Shown piece by piece: positions 3-21,119 of a DNA stretch of 29,264 bases. Under the pieces are notes generated by a model. The model did no database searches. It was not told the DNA's origin and worked only from the letters and a program-made list of their open reading frames with translations. Each line of letters starts with the position of its first letter. The first letter of the stretch is position 1. The position numbers and the translations under genes are program-made. The DNA lies in the IMG/VR virus record IMGVR_UViG_3300048672_000155, positions 1 to 29,264 of that record, one strand, 5' to 3'. This stretch comes from a virus.

Positions 3-698
3 ATAAAAGCTATTGAGAAAAAATTAGAAATACCATATAAAGTTATTAAAAGAAAGATAGACGGATACAATATTAGACAACGAAATTATACGGAGTACAC
101 AAATACATCTGAGTTTAAAAATTTAGATTTGAGAAGAAAGACTAAACATATAAATAAAGATATGTTGTTTAAAATGTATGTTGATGAAAAATTATCTTCT
201 ACAACTATATCAGAAATATTAAATCTTTCTAAAGCTGCTGTTGTTAAAATGTTAAATAAGTACAAAATACCTATAAGAGATGTTGAACAATTAAGAAAAA
301 TATCTTCAGCAAAAGCGCAAGGAATAAATATTGATGAATGGGAAAGATTCGTTGTTACAGAAGACCAAAGATTAAGAAAGAAAGAATCTCACAGAAAAAT
401 AATTAGAGATGTTTTAAAAGGTGATGATTATACTTGTCAATGTTGTAATAAGAGAGGTGGGAGATTAGCAGCACATCACATATTAAATTTCAAACAATAT
501 CCTGAATACAGAGAGACTTTTGATAATTTAATAACCCTATGTGAAGATTGTCATAGCCCTACAATAAAAGGAAGCTATCATCATACATTTGGTGTTAGTA
601 ATAATTGTAAAAGAGAGTTAGACGAATATGTAGACAATCTTAATTTTTATACAGGTAAATCAGATTGGGAAACTTTTGAAGAATCAGTAAAACAATAA
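3..698 (+). CDS. HNH homing endonuclease, 5'-truncated by the window edge
   Basis: The frame is open from base 3, so the gene starts upstream; a TTG at 129 is an internal codon rather than a convincing start. The visible part is about 231 residues. A helix-turn-helix-like segment (LSSTTISEILNLSKAAVVKM, bases about 189-248) precedes a C-terminal HNH nuclease with two CxxC zinc knuckles (CQCC at about 437-448, CEDC at about 540-551) and the HH of AAHHIL between them. HNH proteins with DNA-binding repeats of this kind are usually free-standing homing endonucleases in T4-like phages, cutting an allele that lacks them. It lies just upstream of the prohead protease gene, a typical intergenic insertion position. 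The HNH assignment is strong; the homing role is inferred from context. Confidence 0.85.
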   Translation: MKAIEKKLEIPYKVIKRKIDGYNIRQRNYTEYTNTSEFKNLDLRRKTKHINKDMLFKMYVDEKLSSTTISEILNLSKAAVVKMLNKYKIPIRDVEQLRKISSAKAQGINIDEWERFVVTEDQRLRKKESHRKIIRDVLKGDDYTCQCCNKRGGRLAAHHILNFKQYPEYRETFDNLITLCEDCHSPTIKGSYHHTFGVSNNCKRELDEYVDNLNFYTGKSDWETFEESVKQ

Positions 699-5864: not shown

Positions 5865-7259
5865 ATGAAAAAAGGATTAACAAAATTAACTACAAAAGAT
5901 TTTATTAAACAAGCTACTAAAGTTCATGGTAAAACATATGATTATTCTCTTGTTGATTATAAAGGTACTAAGAAAAAAGTAAAAATAATTTGTAGAAAAC
6001 ATGGAATTTTTGAACAAGTTTATAGAGATCATGTTACACTTAAAATGAATTGTCCTGTTTGTTTTAAAGAGAGAAGAATTAATTCTAACCCTAAATTAAC
6101 AACAAAAGAGTTTATTAAAAGAGCCAAAGAAGTTCATGGAGATCGTTATGATTATTCTAAGGTTGATTATGTTAATTCTGGTGTTAAGGTTTGTATAATT
6201 TGTAAAGAACATGGAGAGTTTTGGCAATATCCTTTAAATCATACAAGAGCAAAAATGAAATGCCCCCCTTGTGCCATAATTCAAAGAGCTAATAAACGTA
6301 GGGGGACAACAGAACAATTTATTACAAAGGCTAAATTAACTCATGGGAACAAATATGATTACTCTAAATCTATTTTTACAGGAGTTGATGATAAATTAAT
6401 TATCATATGTCACAAGTTAGACAAAGATGGAAAAGAGCATGGAGAATTTAAACAAAGTGCTTATAGTCATGTTAATGGGTCTGGATGTTTTAGATGTGTT
6501 CATAAAAAATCCAACACTCAACCAAAAATTCTAACAACAAAAGGTTTTATAGAAAAGGCTGTTAAAATACATGGAAATCGTTATGACTATTCTAAGATTG
6601 ATTATAAAGGATATAATGTCCATGTTTGTATAATTTGTTTAGAGCATGGGGAATTTTGGCAAAGACCAGCAAGACATTTAACAAGTGAGGCTGATTGTCC
6701 AAAATGTGCAAAAATACAACACGCTTTAGATGCTTTTTTAACTCAAGAGGAATTTATAGAAAGTGCTAAAGAAGTTCATGGAGATCGTTATGATTATTCT
6801 CTTGTCAAATATACAGGAATGAAAAATAAGGTTACTATAAAATGTTCAAATGGTCATATATTTAAACAATCAGCAGGAACTCATATAAATGGTCACGGAT
6901 GTCCTAAATGTAACAGAAGTAAAGGCGAGATAATTATAGAAGATTGGTTGATAAAAAATAATATAAGGTACAAGCACGAGAAAACTTTTAAAGGATGTAA
7001 AGATAAAGGATTTTTAAGATTTGATTTTTACTTAATAGATTTTAATATGTGTGTAGAATTTGATGGTAAACAGCATTTTGAAGTTATAGGCAAATGGAAA
7101 AATAATGGTGATCTTGAAGGAACTATAAGAAGAGACAAAATAAAGACCAATTACTGCAAATCAAATAACATAAAACTTCTACGCTTCAATTACAAACAAT
7201 CAAAAGAAGAAATAACAAATAGATTGACTTTTAACTTCAAATCAACTATATTACAATGA
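5865..7259 (+). CDS. zinc-ribbon repeat protein with PD-(D/E)XK (Vsr-like) nuclease, probable homing endonuclease
   Basis: The 464-residue protein has five repeats of about 60-70 residues starting near 13, 83, 152, 228 and 297. Each has the pattern F-I-x-x-A...HG-x-x-YDYS...K-V-x-IIC...HG-x-F...H...C-P-x-C and probably binds one zinc. The C-terminus (residues 352-450) is a Vsr/PD-(D/E)XK-type nuclease: RFDFYL (Asp387), CVEFDGKQHF (Glu398, Asp400, Lys402), then a helix and IKLLRFNY. Repeat-plus-nuclease proteins of this kind occur in phages and giant viruses and are thought to be mobile endonucleases, with the repeats giving DNA specificity. ATG 5865 follows TAGGA (5856-5860). The gene is AT-rich relative to gp23 and overlaps the next nuclease gene by four bases. 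Confidence 0.8.
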   Translation: MKKGLTKLTTKDFIKQATKVHGKTYDYSLVDYKGTKKKVKIICRKHGIFEQVYRDHVTLKMNCPVCFKERRINSNPKLTTKEFIKRAKEVHGDRYDYSKVDYVNSGVKVCIICKEHGEFWQYPLNHTRAKMKCPPCAIIQRANKRRGTTEQFITKAKLTHGNKYDYSKSIFTGVDDKLIIICHKLDKDGKEHGEFKQSAYSHVNGSGCFRCVHKKSNTQPKILTTKGFIEKAVKIHGNRYDYSKIDYKGYNVHVCIICLEHGEFWQRPARHLTSEADCPKCAKIQHALDAFLTQEEFIESAKEVHGDRYDYSLVKYTGMKNKVTIKCSNGHIFKQSAGTHINGHGCPKCNRSKGEIIIEDWLIKNNIRYKHEKTFKGCKDKGFLRFDFYLIDFNMCVEFDGKQHFEVIGKWKNNGDLEGTIRRDKIKTNYCKSNNIKLLRFNYKQSKEEITNRLTFNFKSTILQ

Positions 7260-7345
7260 TGAAAACTAAATTACAAACTTTTATAGAACGTGCCAAATTG
7301 ATTCATGGAGATCGTTATGATTATTCTAAGGTTGACTATGTTAAT
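6135..7345 (+). repeat. 42-base repeat shared by the two adjacent nuclease genes
   Basis: Bases 6135-6176 (repeat 2 of the first nuclease) and 7304-7345 (repeat 1 of the second) match at 41 of 42 positions, and a partial copy starts at 6777. Both encode HGDRYDYSKVDYVN. The near-identity is greater than elsewhere in the domain repeats and suggests recent duplication or gene conversion. Confidence 0.8.
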
Positions 7346-8965
7346 GGAAAGACCAAGGTTATGATAATTTGTAGAAAAGAAGATCATGGTGAATTTATGC
7401 AGACACCGGATTCTCATATTTTTCAGAAGGCAAAGTGTCCGATCTGCAGCTATGAGAACCGTAACGAGAGTAGGATGGTTGATTGGCAAGAGGTTTTAAA
7501 AAGGATAGAAGAGGCTCATAAGGAAGATTTTAAATATTTGGATTTTTCTCAAGTTGTTTATAAAAATAGTCAAACGAAGATAAAGATAATCTGTAAAAAA
7601 GAAGATCATGGAGAATTTTGGCAGAGACCATCAGACACTTGTAGAGGAGTTAGTTGTCCTAAGTGCGGTAGAGATAAAACTAATAAGGCAATGACAGGAA
7701 CGACAGAGAAGTTTATAGAGGCTGCCAATAAGGTTCATAACAATATATATGATTATTCTAAGGTTGATTATGTTGGTGCTTATACGAAGGTTGAGATTAT
7801 ATGCGAACGACACGGATCATTTTTTCAGAACCCAGCAGACCATGTGAATAAAGAATCTAAATGTCCGAAGTGTTATAATGAGAGAAGGAGCAGTATTGGT
7901 AGATCAAATAAAGAAGAATTTATAAACAGTGGTATGATTAAGTATAATGGTACAGTTAAATATGACTTAGTAGAATATGTAAATTCTAAAACCAAAGTTA
8001 CGTTGATATGCGATAAAGGCCATCAATATGAGCAGACACCTAACGGTCATCTAAACGGCTATGGTTGTCATATGTGTTGTAATATAGGAGTTTCAAAATT
8101 AGAAAAAGAAGTTTATGATTTTATTAAGATTTATTACAATGACGCTATATCAAACACAAACGAAATATTATCGCCAAAAGAACTTGATATTTATATTCCA
8201 TATATTAAACTTGCTATAGAATTTAATGGTTTATATTGGCATAGTTCTGAATACAAAGATAAAAACGATCATAAATTAAAAACTGATATGTGCGAAAAAC
8301 TTGGAATCCACCTTGTACAAATATTTGAAGATGATTGGAAATATAAACAAGATATAGTAAAGTCTCGCCTATTAAATCTGATGGGTAAGAACGATAATAA
8401 AATAGCCGCACGTAAATGTGTTATTAAATTAGTAGATCAAAAAGTAGGCAAACAATTTCTTCAACAAAATCATTTACAGGGATACACTTCTTTTACTATT
8501 GGTTGTGGATTATTCTTTAATGATGAGTTAGTTTCTCTTATGACTTTTGGAAAGAGGCGAGTTTGTTTAGGTAAGAAAGAATCACAAGAGGGTGAATTTG
8601 AATTGATGAGATTTGCTAGTAAACTTAATACTTCTGTTATGGGTGCGGCAAATAAACTCTTTAAATATTTTGTAGACAATTATAAGCCAAAACATATAAT
8701 ATCTTACGCTGATAGATGTTGGACAATGAATAATGGATCTACTGTTTATGATAAGTTAGGATTTACTTTAGAAGGATTAACACCGCCGAATTATTATTAT
8801 GTTGTTGGAGATAAAAGAAAACATAGATTTGGTTTTAGAAAGGCAAAGTTAGTTGAGGATGGTTACGATGCTTCAATGACTGAGAGTGAAATTATGCAGG
8901 ATCGTGGAATACCTAAGATATATAATTCCGGCAATCTTAAATATTCCTTGACTTTCCCATCATAA
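7256..8965 (+). CDS. zinc-ribbon repeat protein with Vsr-like (EDxHD-type) endonuclease and C-terminal GNAT-like domain
   Basis: The 569-residue protein begins with four zinc-ribbon repeats (starting near 9, 80, 152 and 221; CPIC, CPKC, CPKC and CHMC pairs) like those of the preceding gene. Residues 280-372 form a Vsr-like nuclease with ELDIYIP (Glu309, Asp311), AIEFNGLYWHSS (Glu322, His329) and H339-K-L-K-T-D344, the EDxHD pattern described for phage homing endonucleases. Residues 388-530 have a different fold, with MRFASKLNTSVMGAANKLF, VYDKLGFTLEG and KHRFGFRK reminiscent of GNAT-type acyltransferases. That last assignment is tentative. The ATG overlaps the previous stop (ATGA), so the two nucleases are probably translationally coupled, both behind the structured RNA. 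The repeats probably recognise DNA. Confidence 0.8.
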   Translation: MMKTKLQTFIERAKLIHGDRYDYSKVDYVNGKTKVMIICRKEDHGEFMQTPDSHIFQKAKCPICSYENRNESRMVDWQEVLKRIEEAHKEDFKYLDFSQVVYKNSQTKIKIICKKEDHGEFWQRPSDTCRGVSCPKCGRDKTNKAMTGTTEKFIEAANKVHNNIYDYSKVDYVGAYTKVEIICERHGSFFQNPADHVNKESKCPKCYNERRSSIGRSNKEEFINSGMIKYNGTVKYDLVEYVNSKTKVTLICDKGHQYEQTPNGHLNGYGCHMCCNIGVSKLEKEVYDFIKIYYNDAISNTNEILSPKELDIYIPYIKLAIEFNGLYWHSSEYKDKNDHKLKTDMCEKLGIHLVQIFEDDWKYKQDIVKSRLLNLMGKNDNKIAARKCVIKLVDQKVGKQFLQQNHLQGYTSFTIGCGLFFNDELVSLMTFGKRRVCLGKKESQEGEFELMRFASKLNTSVMGAANKLFKYFVDNYKPKHIISYADRCWTMNNGSTVYDKLGFTLEGLTPPNYYYVVGDKRKHRFGFRKAKLVEDGYDASMTESEIMQDRGIPKIYNSGNLKYSLTFPS

Positions 8966-9020: not shown

Positions 9021-10424
9021 ATGTCAGAAGTATCTCAGAATTATGATAACAAAGCCATAACGGAATCAGGACTTTCAAACGAGGAGATAGTAGATCGTTG
9101 TATTAAATTGAATTACCGCTATTTAAAACTTGGATTGATGGGGCCGATGTATGGTGCTAAGAATGGGTTGAGAACGAGTCTGAAGGATGGGAGATTACTT
9201 TATAGTGTTTCTGAGGATAAAAAGTTCATAGGATTTCTTCTTTGGAATATTTTAAAAAGGACAAATACTATTGATATAAGAAAGGTTGCTATTGAAGAGG
9301 ATTTTAAATATCAAGGTTTTGGAAAGAAGTTATATGAGCAGGTGGTTAATATTTGTAAAGAGAAGAATATTAATTTCATAAGAGCCAAAGCATCAAACCT
9401 TAACACAGATTCTCATAAATGGTATACTGGTTTGGGGTTTATAAAGGTTGATGAAGGAGATAACACAGTAACTTTTATTAAGGAATTGAACGGCAAGAAA
9501 TATGAACCAATAGTAAAAAAAGATAATAGTGTTAAGCCAGTTAAATTAGAATGGGTGATAGGTGAAGAAGCTCCTAAAGAGTTTGAAGATATTGTTAATT
9601 TTTTTGATGAAGAGGAAAGAAAAAATGATAACGGGGAAGTGACTCCTTGGATATTTAAAAATGATTTGACTCTATTTAAAAAACAATATGATAGATTATG
9701 CAGGGGAACAATTTTACCAACAAATCGCCACATTGCTTGTTTAGACCTTATGGAATTTTATCATAAGCAGATGTGGTTTATGAATGGAATGGCATCTATA
9801 TTGGAATGGCAGAACAACAAAAAGCATATAATAAATAACAGGCTTAAATATGTTGATCTGCAGCCGAGAGCATTGAGAAGGTATTTTAGAATTTGTTATA
9901 TGGTGCCTAATTTGTTTCAAGATAATGTTGCTCGTTATATGTCTTCCGAGATTGTTGGAAATTTAATATATGATCCTTTTGCGGGGTTCGGTGGTAGAAT
10001 GTTGGGTGTTTCTTCTATGGGTAAACAATACATAGGAAATGATATTAACGCTCTATCTGTCAACGCAAACAATCAAATTATAAGAGATATTGGTTTAAAG
10101 AATGTTGAAGTTTTGTGGAGGGATAGTAGAAATTTTGAAATAGAGTGTGACGGTCTTATAACTTCGCCTCCGTTTTATAATAAAGATGTTTACAAAGAAG
10201 ATAGTGAATTTAAGTCTCTTGATGATTTTAAAACATTTATTCATGATATTTTTTGTAAAGTTAAAGTAAGAGATAAAGCAATCATAGACTTTAAAGAAAA
10301 TAAACACTGCTCTCTTGATGATTTTGAAAGTGCTTTGCCGTTTAAAAATATAGAGAGAAAACAACATAATTTTAACGGTATGAAAAATCACGGATCTATA
10401 CATACTTGGTTCTATTGCTCATAA
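9021..10424 (+). CDS. GNAT acetyltransferase - DNA methyltransferase fusion
   Basis: This 467-residue protein joins two enzymes. Residues 30-155 are a GNAT domain: KFIGFLLWNI, IDIRKVAIEEDF, the acetyl-CoA loop YQGFGKKL (97-104) and WYTGLGFIKV. Residues 270-467 are a Rossmann methyltransferase: DPFAGFGGRMLG (318-329, S-adenosylmethionine loop), GNDIN (339-343) and the catalytic TSPPFY (381-386), an S-P-P-F variant typical of amino-methyltransferases acting on adenine N6 or cytosine N4. The middle (RLKYVDLQPRALRRYFRICY) may contact substrate. Chemistry on DNA bases is the simplest reading; whether both domains act on one base is unknown. It follows the nuclease pair by 55 bases and closes the accessory island. 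ATG 9021 follows AAAGGAT. Domain calls are firm, substrate is not. Confidence 0.8.
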   Translation: MSEVSQNYDNKAITESGLSNEEIVDRCIKLNYRYLKLGLMGPMYGAKNGLRTSLKDGRLLYSVSEDKKFIGFLLWNILKRTNTIDIRKVAIEEDFKYQGFGKKLYEQVVNICKEKNINFIRAKASNLNTDSHKWYTGLGFIKVDEGDNTVTFIKELNGKKYEPIVKKDNSVKPVKLEWVIGEEAPKEFEDIVNFFDEEERKNDNGEVTPWIFKNDLTLFKKQYDRLCRGTILPTNRHIACLDLMEFYHKQMWFMNGMASILEWQNNKKHIINNRLKYVDLQPRALRRYFRICYMVPNLFQDNVARYMSSEIVGNLIYDPFAGFGGRMLGVSSMGKQYIGNDINALSVNANNQIIRDIGLKNVEVLWRDSRNFEIECDGLITSPPFYNKDVYKEDSEFKSLDDFKTFIHDIFCKVKVRDKAIIDFKENKHCSLDDFESALPFKNIERKQHNFNGMKNHGSIHTWFYCS

Positions 10425-14429: not shown

Positions 14430-15032
14430 ATGTTTGAAAAGAATAAAAATTTGAGATCCAAGAATGAGACTGTTAAATTTACTCAAGAAATGTTAGAAGA
14501 GTATATGAGATGTTCTGAAGATATTTTATATTTTGCTAGCAAGTATTATTACATTACAACTATTGACTATGGGAAGATTATTATACCTTTGTGGGATTTT
14601 CAAAAAAAGGTATTGCTTGCTATGCAGAATCCCCCCAATGGTAAGAGACATACGATAATGAATTTTTCAAGACAATCAGGCAAAACAACTTTATCTTCTA
14701 TATTTTTGTTACATCAAGCATTATTTAAAACTAATCAAGTTTTTGCAATTCTAGCCAACCGAGAAAAAACCGCCATAGAAATTTTAAGACGAATAAAAGA
14801 TGCTTATGAAATGCTTCCTTTATGGTTACAGCAAGGTGTTGTTGAATGGGCTAAAGGTAAAATTGCGTTAGAAAATGGTTGTGTTATATTAGCGTCATCA
14901 ACATCATCAACGGCAATCAGAGGATATACTATAAATTGCGTTACTGCTCCGACAAAAGTAACAGTAAGGAATAAAAAAACAGGTAAGATTGAAGAGATGT
15001 CTATAAAAGAATTGGAGAAGTGTTTATGTTAA
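14430..15032 (+). CDS. 17: terminase large subunit N-half with 31-residue split-intein N-fragment
   Basis: The first 169 residues are the N-terminal part of the TerL packaging ATPase: adenine-binding region PLWDFQKKVL (53-62), Walker A SRQSGKTT (80-87) and SSTAIRGYTIN just before the expected Walker B strand. At Cys170 (base 14937) an intein block A begins (CVTAPTKVTVRNKKTGKIEE) and the frame stops after only 31 intein residues. The rest of the protein is in the -1 frame in the next gene, whose ATG (15026) overlaps this stop. ATG 14430 after AAAGGA is preferred to TTG 14424. Activity requires trans-splicing with the downstream product. A true split gene and a frameshifted continuous intein both fit; the new ribosome site favours the former. 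Confidence 0.9.
   Translation: MFEKNKNLRSKNETVKFTQEMLEEYMRCSEDILYFASKYYYITTIDYGKIIIPLWDFQKKVLLAMQNPPNGKRHTIMNFSRQSGKTTLSSIFLLHQALFKTNQVFAILANREKTAIEILRRIKDAYEMLPLWLQQGVVEWAKGKIALENGCVILASSTSSTAIRGYTINCVTAPTKVTVRNKKTGKIEEMSIKELEKCLC
14937..15029 (+). other. split intein N-fragment
   Basis: There are 31 codons from the splice-junction Cys to the stop. Features are Cys1, the T-K-V of block A at residues 6-8, and the turn RNKKTGKIEE leading to MSIKEL. Block B (T-x-x-H) is absent here and lies in the other gene. Such short N-fragments characterise atypically split inteins, of which AceL-TerL (25 residues), also in a TerL gene, is the known example. Confidence 0.88.
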
Positions 15033-16132
15033 AAAGAAACGATCTTGATATTGAAGAGCATAAGAAATTTATTTATGCTTATAAAATTACTAATACGATA
15101 GACAATACTATATATGTAGGTATTCACGGTACAAATAATTTAGATGATGGGTATATGGGTTCTGGAAGTTATCTTAAGAGAGCAATTAAAAAGTATGGAA
15201 GAAAAAAATTTACAAAAGAGATACTTCAATATTTTAAATCGTATAAAGAGGCATTAGATTATGAGGCTGTAATAGTAACAAAAGAGTTTATAGAGCGTCA
15301 TGATACTTATAATCTTAAAGAGGGTGGTTTTTGTAATTATGAGTGGTCTGATGAATATAAAAGAAATCAATCTATAGCTATAAGAGGAAGTGAACTATGT
15401 AGAAATAAAATAAAAATTCTTAATAAAAATCCAGAGAAAATAAGAAAAATGGCAGAATCTCACACAGGAATGAAAAGAACGGAAGAAAGTAAAAAGAAAA
15501 TGTCTGATGCAGGAAAAGGAAAGCATGATGGTATTTTGAATGGTTGGTTTAAAGGATGGTATATAACTCCTAAAGGAAAGTTTGAAAGTTTACGAAAAGC
15601 AGGTAAAGAATTTGATAGTTGTGATGCTAATATAGATAATTGGTGTGTTAGATTAAATTCTAAAAAAATAGTTAAAGGAACAATATTAAGAAGACCTGAT
15701 TTGTTTGATTTGTCTATGTTAGGTAAAACTTGGAAAGAACTTGGATGGGGGTTTGATGCTGCTACTAAAAAAGAAAGAAAAGTTAAATATGACACTCTTA
15801 AAGAAAACACAGAATATGAAATACTAACATCCGAAGGTTTTAAGGATTTTAAGGGTATTGTAACTTCTAAAGCAGCAACATTAATTTTAACATTTGATGA
15901 TAATAGCACTTTAGAATGTACAAAAAAACATAGAATATTTTATAAGACAAAAGTAGGAAAGAGATATAAATATGCACAATCTTTCAAAATTGGTGATAAT
16001 GTTGTAAGTAAGGACGGGTTCAAAACAATAATAAAAATAGAAAAAGTTCAAGGAGCATATCAAACAGTATATGAAATATTGCAAGTTTCTGACAATAATG
16101 AATACTATACAAATGATATTTTGAGCCACAAT
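15026..16132 (+). other. split intein C-fragment carrying a GIY-YIG homing endonuclease
   Basis: It runs from the start codon to the terminal Asn before Cys370. The last 21 residues contain EILQVSDNNEYYTNDIL and end S-H-N, giving the penultimate His and terminal Asn needed for cyclisation; T299-K-K-H302 is block B. Splicing would release this 369-residue piece as an endonuclease fused to the intein C-domain. Confidence 0.88.
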
Positions 16133-17152
16133 TGTCTTGTATTAGACGAGTATGCTCATGTGCCACCAAATATACAGGATGATTTTATGTCTTCTGTAAT
16201 ACCCACAACATCATCGGGAAAAACTTCTAAGATTATTATTATGTCAACTCCGAATGGTACAGAGATGTTTTATAATATTTGGACTGCTGCTGTTCGTGGT
16301 CAAAATTCTTATTATCCTATTAAAGTATTATGGTCTGACATTCCTGGTAGAGATGCTGCTTGGCGAAAGAGAATAATAGATGATCTTCCTGGTGGACTCG
16401 ATAGTTTTCTCCAAGAGTATGATTGTCGTTTTATAGGATCAGCAAACTCTCTAATTGACACAGATAAATTAGAAAAATTCAAATATAAACCATACTTAGA
16501 TACAAAATGGAGCGGTTTGATGAAGATTTATGAGTACCCTATAGTTGGCTGTAAATACGTGATAGGGGTTGACACTGCAGGAGGTGGTGGTCAACTTAAA
16601 TCAAATTATTCAGTAATTCAGGTAATAAAGATCAAAAGTAAACAAGATTTGGAACAGGTGGCTATTTATAGATGCAACACAGTAAACCCATATGATTTTG
16701 CTATTATTGTTAAGGATGTATCAAACTATTATAACGATGCGTCTGCTATGATAGAAAATAATGCAGACGTTGGTGGAATATTATTGGCGACACTTTGGAA
16801 CGACTTGGAGTTTGATAAGATAGTAAATATATCTCCGAAGTGGCTAGGTGTTAAAGCTACATCAATAACAAAGAGCGAAGGTAATATGTTATTGAAGAGA
16901 TACCTTGAGTCGGGTTGGTTGACATTGTGGGATAAGGATACAATACATGAGTTAAGTATGTATCAAGAGGTTCGTTTGGGAATTTTTAAGGCACAAAGGG
17001 ACAGTGATTTTGATGATTGTGTTACTTCTCTTATTTGGGCTGTTTATTATACCAAGACGGATGAATTTTCTGATTTAAACATGGATGATATTTATAGACC
17101 AGATGTTGTGAGAGATGATAAGAATTATGAGATGATGGCTATTTTTGATTGA
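15026..17152 (+). CDS. 17: GIY-YIG endonuclease - intein C-fragment - terminase large subunit C-half
   Basis: This 708-residue protein has three parts. Residues 14-101 are a GIY-YIG nuclease (FIYAYKITNTIDNTIYVGIHG, then MGSGSYLKRAIKKYG and NLKEGG), followed by NUMOD3-like ESHTGMKRTEESKKKMSDAG (144-163) and a further probable DNA-binding segment ending GKTWKELGWGF. Residues about 252-369 are the intein C-fragment, with block B CTKKH (298-302) and a terminus ILSHN, then Cys370 as the +1 residue. Residues 370-708 are TerL: Walker B LVLDEYA, coupling motif STPNG, and RNase H-like nuclease motifs GVDTAGG, IENNAD and DFDDCVTSLIWA. Joined to the N-half, the extein is 508 residues, a normal TerL. GGAG (15014-15017) eight bases before ATG 15026 supports independent initiation over the GTG at 15020. 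Confidence 0.9.
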   Translation: MLKRNDLDIEEHKKFIYAYKITNTIDNTIYVGIHGTNNLDDGYMGSGSYLKRAIKKYGRKKFTKEILQYFKSYKEALDYEAVIVTKEFIERHDTYNLKEGGFCNYEWSDEYKRNQSIAIRGSELCRNKIKILNKNPEKIRKMAESHTGMKRTEESKKKMSDAGKGKHDGILNGWFKGWYITPKGKFESLRKAGKEFDSCDANIDNWCVRLNSKKIVKGTILRRPDLFDLSMLGKTWKELGWGFDAATKKERKVKYDTLKENTEYEILTSEGFKDFKGIVTSKAATLILTFDDNSTLECTKKHRIFYKTKVGKRYKYAQSFKIGDNVVSKDGFKTIIKIEKVQGAYQTVYEILQVSDNNEYYTNDILSHNCLVLDEYAHVPPNIQDDFMSSVIPTTSSGKTSKIIIMSTPNGTEMFYNIWTAAVRGQNSYYPIKVLWSDIPGRDAAWRKRIIDDLPGGLDSFLQEYDCRFIGSANSLIDTDKLEKFKYKPYLDTKWSGLMKIYEYPIVGCKYVIGVDTAGGGGQLKSNYSVIQVIKIKSKQDLEQVAIYRCNTVNPYDFAIIVKDVSNYYNDASAMIENNADVGGILLATLWNDLEFDKIVNISPKWLGVKATSITKSEGNMLLKRYLESGWLTLWDKDTIHELSMYQEVRLGIFKAQRDSDFDDCVTSLIWAVYYTKTDEFSDLNMDDIYRPDVVRDDKNYEMMAIFD

Positions 17153-19203: not shown

Positions 19204-19812
19204 ATGGCCGATACCAAGCAAAATTATACAATCGAGGGACGTGCTGGAGCGATTATTAAGGATGTTCAGAGGGAGTGGATGTGGAACTTGTCTATCCCAA
19301 ACATTACTAATATGGTCGATACAAACGATCTCGACTTGACAAAGGATCTAGTAGAAGAGATGACTATACGAGCTAGAAGTGTTTCGATGCCGTCCCGTGG
19401 TGTAGAAACGATTGAGAGTGTTTTCATGTCTCAAAAACAATTCTTCCCCGGTAAACCAACTTTCGGAAATACTGTATCTGTTCAATTCGAGGAGTCTGAA
19501 AATCAAAATGTTGCTAAGATACTTTACTCGTGGCAGCAGAACATTATGGACATTCGATCTGGACATTCTAATAGGCTCGGTAAACGTCCTGCAAATCAAC
19601 CAGGATCTTACGTTACCGATATGATTCTCAACATGGTCTCTTTTAATGGGACAGCTTCGGATAAGATTATACTTTTTAAGAATGTATTTCCTGAGAATGT
19701 TGGTGATGTTGCTTTAAGTTATGATGGGGCAGGATCTGTTAAGTTTGATGTAACATTCAGATTTGACTTCTGGTATCTCATGCGTTTAGGGGAACCCATC
19801 ATCACTGCTTAA
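19204..19812 (+). CDS. 19: tail tube protein (T4 gp19-like)
   Basis: This 202-residue protein stacks into the inner tail tube. Typical are EWMWNLSIPNI near the start, MTIRARSVSMPSRGVETIES, the long strand-loop QKQFFPGKPTFGNTVSVQFE, WQQNIMDIRSGHS, and the terminal VKFDVTFRFDFWYL. Length and motif order agree with T4 gp19 (163 residues) plus modest insertions. AATAGGAGATATAAA precedes ATG 19204. Two genes downstream encode related folds; this one is the main tube candidate because it is closest to the sheath gene, preceded by its own regulatory region, and has the most regular family features. Confidence 0.93.
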   Translation: MADTKQNYTIEGRAGAIIKDVQREWMWNLSIPNITNMVDTNDLDLTKDLVEEMTIRARSVSMPSRGVETIESVFMSQKQFFPGKPTFGNTVSVQFEESENQNVAKILYSWQQNIMDIRSGHSNRLGKRPANQPGSYVTDMILNMVSFNGTASDKIILFKNVFPENVGDVALSYDGAGSVKFDVTFRFDFWYLMRLGEPIITA

Positions 19813-19842
19813 CATTTTCAATAACACTCTAAGGGGATCAAA

Positions 19843-20589
19843 ATGAATCTAGTAGACCCAACAAAATCCTCAATGGTGGGGTTGAATAAAAGTATATTAC
19901 AAACAGGAAACTTTACTATAAATGGTCGCCAAGGGATCGGAACATATGCTTCTGATCCCCAACGCACTTACAATTGGGATTTGACTATTCCACAAGACCT
20001 CATCAATCGTGTTAAAAAAGTAGCAGCAAAACGTGGACAAACAGGAAGACCTTTAGCAAATATACCAAACGCTCCGACAATTCCTACAATAAGTAATGAA
20101 GCTAATAAAATTTTGGTAGAGGAAGACCTAATTATCAAATGTAAATCAGCTACAATTCCTAATAAAGCGTTCGATGAGATTTCTACTTCTTTTTTTGGTC
20201 ATAAGAAAATGTTCCCAAGTAAAGTCGCATATTCTAATAGTGTGGATGTTGAATACGAAGAGAATGAGCGGCAAACAATTAAGAGATTTTTTGATGATTG
20301 GCAGTGGGCTATTTATAACGCTGACTTTTATTCTGGCGAAGAGGTTGGAAACAGTTCTTATAGCAGAGATCAATTTACCACAAAGATTCAATTGGCTTTT
20401 TACGGATATAATGGTATAGGATTAGATAAGAATATACAATTTATAAACGCTTGGCCGAAAGAAGTTAAAGATTCTGGAGTTACTTATAATGGTGGTTCAG
20501 AAACAGTTAAATATTCTGTCTCCTTTACTTATGATTTTTGGGAGTTTGGTGCTAATTCTTTGGTTAAAATTCCAGGAGGTTTAATTTAA
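19843..20589 (+). CDS. second tail-tube-fold protein (gp19 paralogue)
   Basis: The 248-residue protein repeats the gp19 layout: RTYNWDLTIPQDL, DLIIKCKSATIPNKAFDEIS, HKKMFPSKVAYSNSVDVEYE, DDWQWAIYNADFYSGE and VKYSVSFTYDFWEFG align in order with the preceding gene. It has an added 25-residue loop (QTGRPLANIPNAPTIPTISN) between the first strands. Paralogues of the tube in T4 are the tube initiator gp54 and the cap gp48; this could be a tube initiator, a tail-terminator-side subunit or a second tube type. AAGGGG (19831-19836) precedes ATG 19843. The next gene starts in its stop codon (TAATG). Confidence 0.82.
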   Translation: MNLVDPTKSSMVGLNKSILQTGNFTINGRQGIGTYASDPQRTYNWDLTIPQDLINRVKKVAAKRGQTGRPLANIPNAPTIPTISNEANKILVEEDLIIKCKSATIPNKAFDEISTSFFGHKKMFPSKVAYSNSVDVEYEENERQTIKRFFDDWQWAIYNADFYSGEEVGNSSYSRDQFTTKIQLAFYGYNGIGLDKNIQFINAWPKEVKDSGVTYNGGSETVKYSVSFTYDFWEFGANSLVKIPGGLI

Positions 20590-21119
20590 TGAGTGCTCTA
20601 AATACAAAAGAATATAGCCCACTCAAATCATTCTTTTCTGCTAATACTAAAACTATACAAAAGAATTTTAGGTTTGAAGTTATTATAGATTCTTACCCAG
20701 AGATTAAACCTTGGCACGTATTAAAAGTTTCGTTTCCTGTTTCTTATGGTTTTAAATTAGAGAATATGAAGATCGGCCCTTATTCTTATGGTATTCCTTT
20801 GATGGATCACACAGGATTTGACATCGATATTACTTTAGAGGAAGATGACAAAGGAACAATTTTTGATTTTATTTTTGATGTACAAGATAGAATAATAGGC
20901 TCTGGATCTTCGGCTAACGGTAATTATAATCCACAAACATCAAATCGCATTCCATCAATAAAGATAAATATGTATAAAGATGATGGAGAGATTTTAAGAT
21001 CATATACCTTTACCAATTGTTTTTTCATGAAAGCGGATAGTTTGAGTTTGGACTATGAAGGAAACGATTCTGTTAAGTATATGGTATCGTTTCATTCTGA
21101 TCTTTTAAGTGTCCAATAA
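20589..21119 (+). CDS. third tail-tube-fold protein (distant gp19 relative)
   Basis: This 176-residue protein is a more distant member of the same fold: NFRFEVIIDSYPEIKPWHVL, VSFPVSYGFKLENMKIGPYS, DHTGFDIDITLEED, SIKINMYKDDGEILRSYTF, and SLDYEGNDSVKYMVSFHSDL at the C-terminus, where gp19 has its final strands. It overlaps the previous stop (TAATG) and so is coupled to the second paralogue. A tube-initiation or neck-side connector role is plausible; T4 has no tandem trio at this point. The fold call is moderately sure and the specific role is unknown. Confidence 0.72.
   Translation: MSALNTKEYSPLKSFFSANTKTIQKNFRFEVIIDSYPEIKPWHVLKVSFPVSYGFKLENMKIGPYSYGIPLMDHTGFDIDITLEEDDKGTIFDFIFDVQDRIIGSGSSANGNYNPQTSNRIPSIKINMYKDDGEILRSYTFTNCFFMKADSLSLDYEGNDSVKYMVSFHSDLLSVQ

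What the first reader, a model, noticed from the sequence alone, without database searches (positions are those of the whole stretch)
14430..17152. Terminase large subunit encoded by two overlapping genes joined only by an atypically split intein
Seen: TerL is interrupted just before Walker B by block A (Cys170, T-K-V), the frame stops 31 residues later, and the remaining intein (T-K-K-H block B, terminal S-H-N/C) and TerL C-half lie in the -1 frame behind their own GGAG and ATG. Known: AceL-TerL and a few metagenomic inteins have very short N-fragments (about 25 residues), useful because nearly all the intein is in the C piece. Inference: the virus must trans-splice to package DNA. Overlapping genes (ATGTTAA) fix near-equal synthesis of both halves. 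A 31-residue N-fragment is rare.
Basis: partly seen in the sequence, partly recalled or inferred. Interest (0 to 1): 0.88.

Follow-up and report, generated by a model that had tools for sequence, protein, structure and literature searches.

The report
Phage DNA-packaging gene split by nuclease-intein
In this phage fragment the gene for the DNA-packaging motor is broken in two by a protein-splicing element, and a DNA-cutting homing endonuclease sits in the break, here fused to the second half of the element instead of being a separate gene as in its relatives; the split itself is a common and partly known arrangement, the fusion is the unusual part.

Summary
IntC matches CatC (6dsl), so this is an AceL/GOS/Cat-type atypically split TerL intein. 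A short IntN is not rare in phages: of 98 distinct IntC sequences examined, 77 are split near the same point (IntN mostly 30-45 aa), 54 of them with room for another gene in the break, often an endonuclease. A tree puts the window's HEN inside a clade of 17 HENs from TerL split inteins; the other 16 are free-standing, so the fusion looks derived. Only one other HEN-IntC fusion turned up (L050, HNH type, another TerL site). Caveat: one extra A in an A6 run at the junction would restore the relatives' three-gene layout, and no second copy of this locus was found. Trans-splicing and homing are inferred, not shown. New variant of a known kind.

The parts
14430..14936 (+). TerL N-extein (169 aa; Walker A SRQSGKTT)
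   Evidence: Pfam Terminase_6N 1.8e-10, phrog_5989 2e-51; T4 gp17 117-274
14937..15029 (+). IntN, 31 residues, Cys1 (block A), ends CLC; stop 15030-15032
   Evidence: translation; profile of IntN sequences matches at 51 bits, but the window's IntN is one of the sequences the profile was built from
15014..15028 (+). GGAG Shine-Dalgarno-like site, 8 nt before ATG 15026; ATG overlaps the upstream stop (ATGTTAA 15026-15032)
   Evidence: sequence; the bare pattern GGAG-N8-ATG is not more frequent in the window than by chance
15026..15754 (+). GIY-YIG homing endonuclease, residues 1-243: GIY-YIG domain ~15-101, NUMOD3 148-166, C-terminal module ~177-243 ending GKTWKELGWGF
   Evidence: Pfam SegE_GIY-YIG 5.6e-6 (above cut-off) and GIY-YIG 1.9e-4; phrog_314 3e-38; model pLDDT >90 over the GIY-YIG domain, top fold hit I-TevI 1mk0
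15755..15799 (+). linker joining HEN and IntC without a stop codon (DAATKKERKVKYDTL); A6 run 15767-15772; out-of-frame ATG 15756 where relatives start IntC
   Evidence: pLDDT <50 at residues 247-254
15800..16132 (+). IntC: YEILT..., block B ECTKKH, block F/G ...EYYTNDILSHN
   Evidence: alignment A1, 33-47% identity to 15 relatives; CatC 6dsl E 4e-10; model pLDDT 89.6, top fold hit 6dsl
16133..17149 (+). TerL C-extein, starts C|LVLDEYAHV (Walker B), with the gp17-like nuclease domain
   Evidence: gp17 3ezk E 3.9e-29; phrog_2

Best explanation
A mobile split intein occupies TerL just before Walker B. TerL-N-IntN and HEN-IntC-TerL-C are made as two chains from overlapping genes. IntN docks on IntC, Cys1, the block B TxxH, Asn369 and Cys+1 carry out class 1 trans-splicing, and the products are a 508-residue TerL and a freed HEN-IntC protein. 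The GIY-YIG HEN would cut intein-free terL and drive homing of the whole insert. HENs in the break between block A and block B are probably what fractured the ancestral contiguous intein; in this phage the usual separate HEN gene has become fused to IntC, so that the nuclease is released from TerL-C by the same splicing event. Shown here: anatomy, homology, position of the break, nested placement of the HEN, open fused frame as assembled. Inferred: splicing, homing, reality of the fusion in the virus.
For: IntC and IntN homology and complete splicing motifs. HEN domain by family, model and fold. Closest full-length HENs are the free-standing ones in the same pre-Walker-B TerL split intein of L094 and L031, whose C-termini (GWGFEDA*, GWGFKEK*) stop exactly where the window's HEN reads on. 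HEN tree: window inside 17 TerL-intein HENs, support 97/90 and 96/80, the other 16 free-standing. Second fusion in L050: HNH_3 6.5e-12 joined to IntC in a 559-codon open frame, with no homopolymer run of 4 or more at the junction. Contiguous and split forms interleave in the IntC tree, e.g. L138 (contiguous) next to L145 (split with an HNH_3 ORF).
Against: No activity data. A one-base difference in the A6 run at 15767 would give the canonical three-gene layout. Only two HEN-IntC fusions among 98 distinct IntCs. The record is a fragment, so a second intact terL elsewhere in the genome cannot be excluded.
Confidence: 0.75

Rival explanations
1. The fusion is not real: the phage has three overlapping genes (terL-N-IntN / free HEN / IntC-terL-C) like L094, and the assembly has lost one A in the run 15767-15772.
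For: An out-of-frame ATG at 15756 lies where L094 starts IntC; with one more A it would read into IntC, and HEN would stop at 15784. The three-gene layout is much the commonest.
Against: 66 A/T runs of 6 or more occur in the window and 17 AAAAAAG sites lie in genes without any other frame break in a recognised family, so the assembly handles such runs well; L050 shows an independent fusion without such a run.
Confidence: 0.15
2. Slippage at A6 (transcriptional, or -1 ribosomal at A_AAA_AAG read from ATG 15756) makes both a HEN-IntC fusion and a free IntC-TerL-C from one sequence.
For: A_AAA_AAG is in the slippery phase relative to ATG 15756.
Against: AAAAAAG is common in this AT-rich window (17 on the + strand); no relative with the same feature was found to test conservation; ATG 15756 has only a weak G-run upstream.
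Confidence: 0.06
3. TerL works as two unspliced polypeptides (gene in pieces), the intein being dead.
For: Gene-in-pieces enzymes made by HEN insertion are known (ribonucleotide reductase; cited in PMC10448857).
Against: All splicing residues are intact, and IntC retains conserved motifs at 33-47% identity across relatives, which a dead intein would lose.
Confidence: 0.04
4. RNA-level splicing (intron) removes the insert.
For: Phage terL can carry group I introns (ICP1; PMC10448857).
Against: No Rfam match in the window; the insert's ends code for intein blocks A, B and G in exactly the right places.
Confidence: 0.01

Closest known systems
AceL-TerL, GOS-TerL and engineered Cat-TerL atypically split inteins (PMC11766414; structure 6dsl)
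   Same: in phage TerL, short IntN (25, 37 and 30 aa; here 31), large IntC, Cys+1; CatC is the best sequence and fold match
   Different: IntC carries a 243-residue GIY-YIG endonuclease at its N-terminus; those were characterised without one. Whether their native loci hold a HEN was not seen here
Fractured genes: split intein with an endonuclease gene between the halves (Dassa 2009, known from citations only; AceL-NrdHF with a GIY-YIG HEN, PMC7891396; MIJ3 polB with an HNH HEN, PMC6892783)
   Same: essential phage gene, split intein, HEN in the break
   Different: AceL-NrdHF is split at the typical HEN site (98 + 48 aa); here the break is after ~31 residues, and the HEN is not free-standing but part of the IntC chain
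Tequatrovirus SP21535 and Jiangsuvirus PspYZU05 terL loci (L023, L022)
   Same: terL-N-IntN / endonuclease-like ORF / IntC-terL-C, each overlapping the next
   Different: free-standing TnsA-like ORF, insertion after rather than before Walker B; annotated as plain terminase or hypothetical protein
L094 and L031 (IMG/VR contigs)
   Same: same insertion site, same HEN lineage including the C-terminal module
   Different: HEN is a separate gene with its own stop; IntC has its own ATG

Membership tests
Atypically split TerL intein (AceL/GOS/Cat) | IntN of roughly 25-45 aa ending between block A and block B | tested here: met
   31 aa, block A in IntN, block B TKKH in IntC
Atypically split TerL intein (AceL/GOS/Cat) | sequence and fold kinship to CatC | tested here: met
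   6dsl_B E 4e-10; Foldseek 4e-7, TM 0.73/0.76
Atypically split TerL intein (AceL/GOS/Cat) | catalytic residues Cys/Ser1, TxxH, terminal HN, Cys+1 | tested here: met
   C170, TKKH, SHN369, C370
Atypically split TerL intein (AceL/GOS/Cat) | trans-splicing activity | not testable with these tools
   needs co-expression
Fractured gene | free-standing endonuclease gene between the intein halves | tested here: not met
   endonuclease present but open in frame into IntC, no stop, no in-frame start with a Shine-Dalgarno near IntC; one-base caveat
GIY-YIG homing endonuclease | GIY-YIG fold and conserved residues | tested here: met
   Y17, Y30, G32, E80, N96 among the invariant columns; best hit I-TevI, E 1.7e-3, prob 1.00
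GIY-YIG homing endonuclease | cuts the intein-free allele and homes | not testable with these tools
   needs cleavage assay or phage cross
Canonical HEN-containing intein | HEN between the halves of the splicing domain near C35 (after block B), one chain | tested here: not met
   HEN lies before block B and in a two-chain arrangement; C35 rule from PMC6801210

The most novel reading that the evidence does not exclude
Natural inteins exist with a homing endonuclease covalently joined to the splicing domain on the N-terminal side of block B, contrary to the stated rule that all intein HEN domains sit at the C35 site; it is tolerated because the chain is broken at that point, and splicing itself then releases the nuclease. 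Arisen at least twice (GIY-YIG here, HNH in L050).
Probability: 0.6. Interest if true: 0.65.

Novelty: new variant of a known kind. Interest (0 to 1): 0.52.

Why it matters
Beyer et al. 2019 (PMC6801210) state that all HEN domains within inteins sit at one site and propose that insertions elsewhere would clash with the host protein. The family seen here gives a natural test: endonucleases of several kinds sit at another place, almost always with the chain broken, and twice fused to IntC. It also offers an explanation for why atypically split TerL inteins are split where they are, namely that endonuclease genes occupy the break, and a series of states (contiguous, split without HEN, split with HEN, fused) to study how a split intein arises. 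Practically, it supplies many new short-IntN split inteins, and shows that annotation pipelines miss split TerL in T4-like phages, where TerL is a marker gene.

Tried and rejected
Rfam for an intron: nothing. The phages collection for the fused architecture: HEN hits cover at most ~58% of HEN-IntC, none joined to an intein. An exact junction pattern in genome contigs and a gapped one in viral contigs, to find a second copy and settle the A6 length: none; the tools may leave out near-identical records. Mixed HEN+IntC alignments (A5, A6) misaligned the two domains, so structures were predicted apart. Internal start for a free IntC: the nearest in-frame ATG (15716) lies inside the HEN and has no Shine-Dalgarno. 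The slippery A_AAA_AAG reading was kept only as a rival because the motif is common here. Equating the break with the 'N35' site was rejected: by counting residues it lies a few residues earlier. IntN alone finds nothing meaningful in the PDB (31 aa). Dassa 2009 is not in the library.

Full report
Check of the observation. The two overlapping frames are as described: 14430-15032 and, in the -1 frame, 15026-17152. The extein halves are TerL: Terminase_6N and phrog_5989 for the N-half, T4 gp17 by sequence for both halves. Cys170, TKKH, SHN369 and C370 are in place. The record is a 29,264-base virus fragment with no second TerL match. Neighbours are T4-like head, neck and tail genes.

Residues 1-243 of the second gene are a GIY-YIG homing endonuclease: phrog_314 (3e-38), SegE_GIY-YIG (5.6e-6, above its cut-off), GIY-YIG (1.9e-4, just under its cut-off), a weak NUMOD3. 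An AlphaFold2 model from 17 related sequences (mean pLDDT 79.6) has a confident GIY-YIG domain, a confident C-terminal module at ~177-243 and a disordered tail at 247-254; its best fold matches are the I-TevI catalytic domain. IntC follows from about residue 259.

The intein. IntC aligns with 15 relatives at 33-47% identity. Its best solved match is CatC, the engineered consensus of the atypically split TerL inteins, by sequence (E 4e-10) and by fold (model pLDDT 89.6, TM 0.73/0.76). GOS-TerL, AceL-TerL and Cat have IntN of 37, 25 and 30 residues (PMC11766414); here it is 31.

How common the split is. Three profile scans of viral contigs with IntC alignments (up to 226 relatives, the best 80 kept each time) and annotated phages gave, after removing near-copies, 98 distinct IntC sequences: 77 split, of which 54 have over 250 bases between IntN stop and IntC; 10 counted contiguous; 8 with no IntN on the stretch held; 3 with a long N-terminal extension, namely the window, L050 and L110. 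These counts are lower bounds from a pattern-based search and depend on the cut-offs. IntN lengths run 26-65, mostly 30-45. The intervening ORFs include GIY-YIG (24 of 55 proteins scanned), HNH_3, TnsA-like, DUF559, Vsr and others; several have no recognised domain. Insertion sites in TerL differ: before Walker B (the window's), after Walker B, and at QEY|CEF. So a short IntN is the usual state in this family, and endonucleases of several kinds occupy the break.

Origin of the window's endonuclease. Its closest full-length relatives, including the C-terminal module, are the free-standing HENs of L094 and L031, which sit in the same pre-Walker-B intein. In a tree of 34 GIY-YIG sequences the window falls inside a set of 17, all from TerL split inteins (97/90), the other 16 free-standing. 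The free HENs end GWGFEDA* and GWGFKEK*, with the IntC start codon overlapping in another frame; the window reads GWGFDAATKKERKVKYDTLKENTEYEILT with no stop. The simplest reading is that a separate HEN gene became fused to IntC. The IntC tree has too few columns to resolve deep order.

How firm the fusion is. At 15756, in the +1 frame, an ATG lies where L094 starts IntC. One more A in the run 15767-15772 would let it read into IntC and would end HEN at 15784. That is a real weakness. Against it: 66 A/T runs of six or more occur in the window without obvious damage to its genes, and L050 has an unrelated HNH endonuclease (HNH_3, 6.5e-12) fused to IntC at another TerL site, with no long homopolymer at the joint. 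No second copy of the window's locus was found.

Mechanism. Most likely the two chains associate and trans-splice by the class 1 route, giving TerL and freeing HEN-IntC; the HEN then spreads the insert by homing. Known for relatives: splicing of AceL/GOS/Cat inteins in vitro (PMC11766414). Not shown here: splicing, cleavage, homing.

Relation to what is known. Fractured genes with a HEN between split-intein halves are known (Dassa 2009 by citation; AceL-NrdHF with a GIY-YIG HEN, PMC7891396; MIJ3 polB with an HNH HEN, PMC6892783), and Campylobacter phage IBB_35 TerL was described as carrying an intein and a HEN (PMC3322345). Beyer et al. (PMC6801210) state that all HEN domains within inteins lie at the C35 site and argue that insertions elsewhere, such as N35, would clash with the exteins. 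Here the HEN lies before block B, by residue count a few residues before N35, and the chain is broken there. I found no description of a HEN fused to IntC at that place, but the paper search covers open-licence papers only.

Verdict. Observation confirmed, interpretation partly supported, new variant of a known kind. Interest 0.52: the split alone is ordinary for this family; the endonuclease-IntC fusion and the family-wide position of the endonucleases are the interesting part.

Noticed in passing
L110 2429-5071 and 3051-3746: A contiguous TerL ORF with a cis intein at the same pre-Walker-B site whose ~230-codon insert reads, in another frame, as an HNH/NUMOD3 endonuclease ORF lying wholly inside the open intein frame: an overlapping gene or a frame-shifted relic.
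   Followed up: partly
L138 and L145: Near-identical IntC at the same TerL site, contiguous in one and split with an HNH_3 ORF in the break in the other: a possible before/after pair for intein fracture.
   Followed up: partly
L019 1002-6278 (Campylobacter phage vB_CcoM-IBB_35, HM246721.1): TerL appears to hold three inteins: a cis one at Walker A, a split one with an ORF in the break, and a third whose IntN-like start is followed in the same ORF by a region annotated as MobE homing endonuclease.
   Followed up: partly
L023 and L022 (Shigella phage SP21535, Pseudomonas phage PspYZU05): Split terL of isolated T4-like phages is annotated as separate terminase and hypothetical proteins; the inteins are not marked.
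   Followed up: yes
L031, L085, L089, L099, L157: Two or more IntC matches in one terL region, i.e. probably several split inteins in one gene.
   Followed up: partly
window 129-698, 5865-7259, 7256-8965: Further endonuclease-like genes: an HNH protein before the head protease and two adjacent large HNH/homing endonucleases after the major head protein.
   Followed up: no
window 9021-10424: 467-aa protein with acetyltransferase matches near its N-terminus and a weak DNA methyltransferase match in the middle, among structural genes.
   Followed up: no
window 19204-21119: Three consecutive genes match the same tail tube family phrog_45.
   Followed up: no
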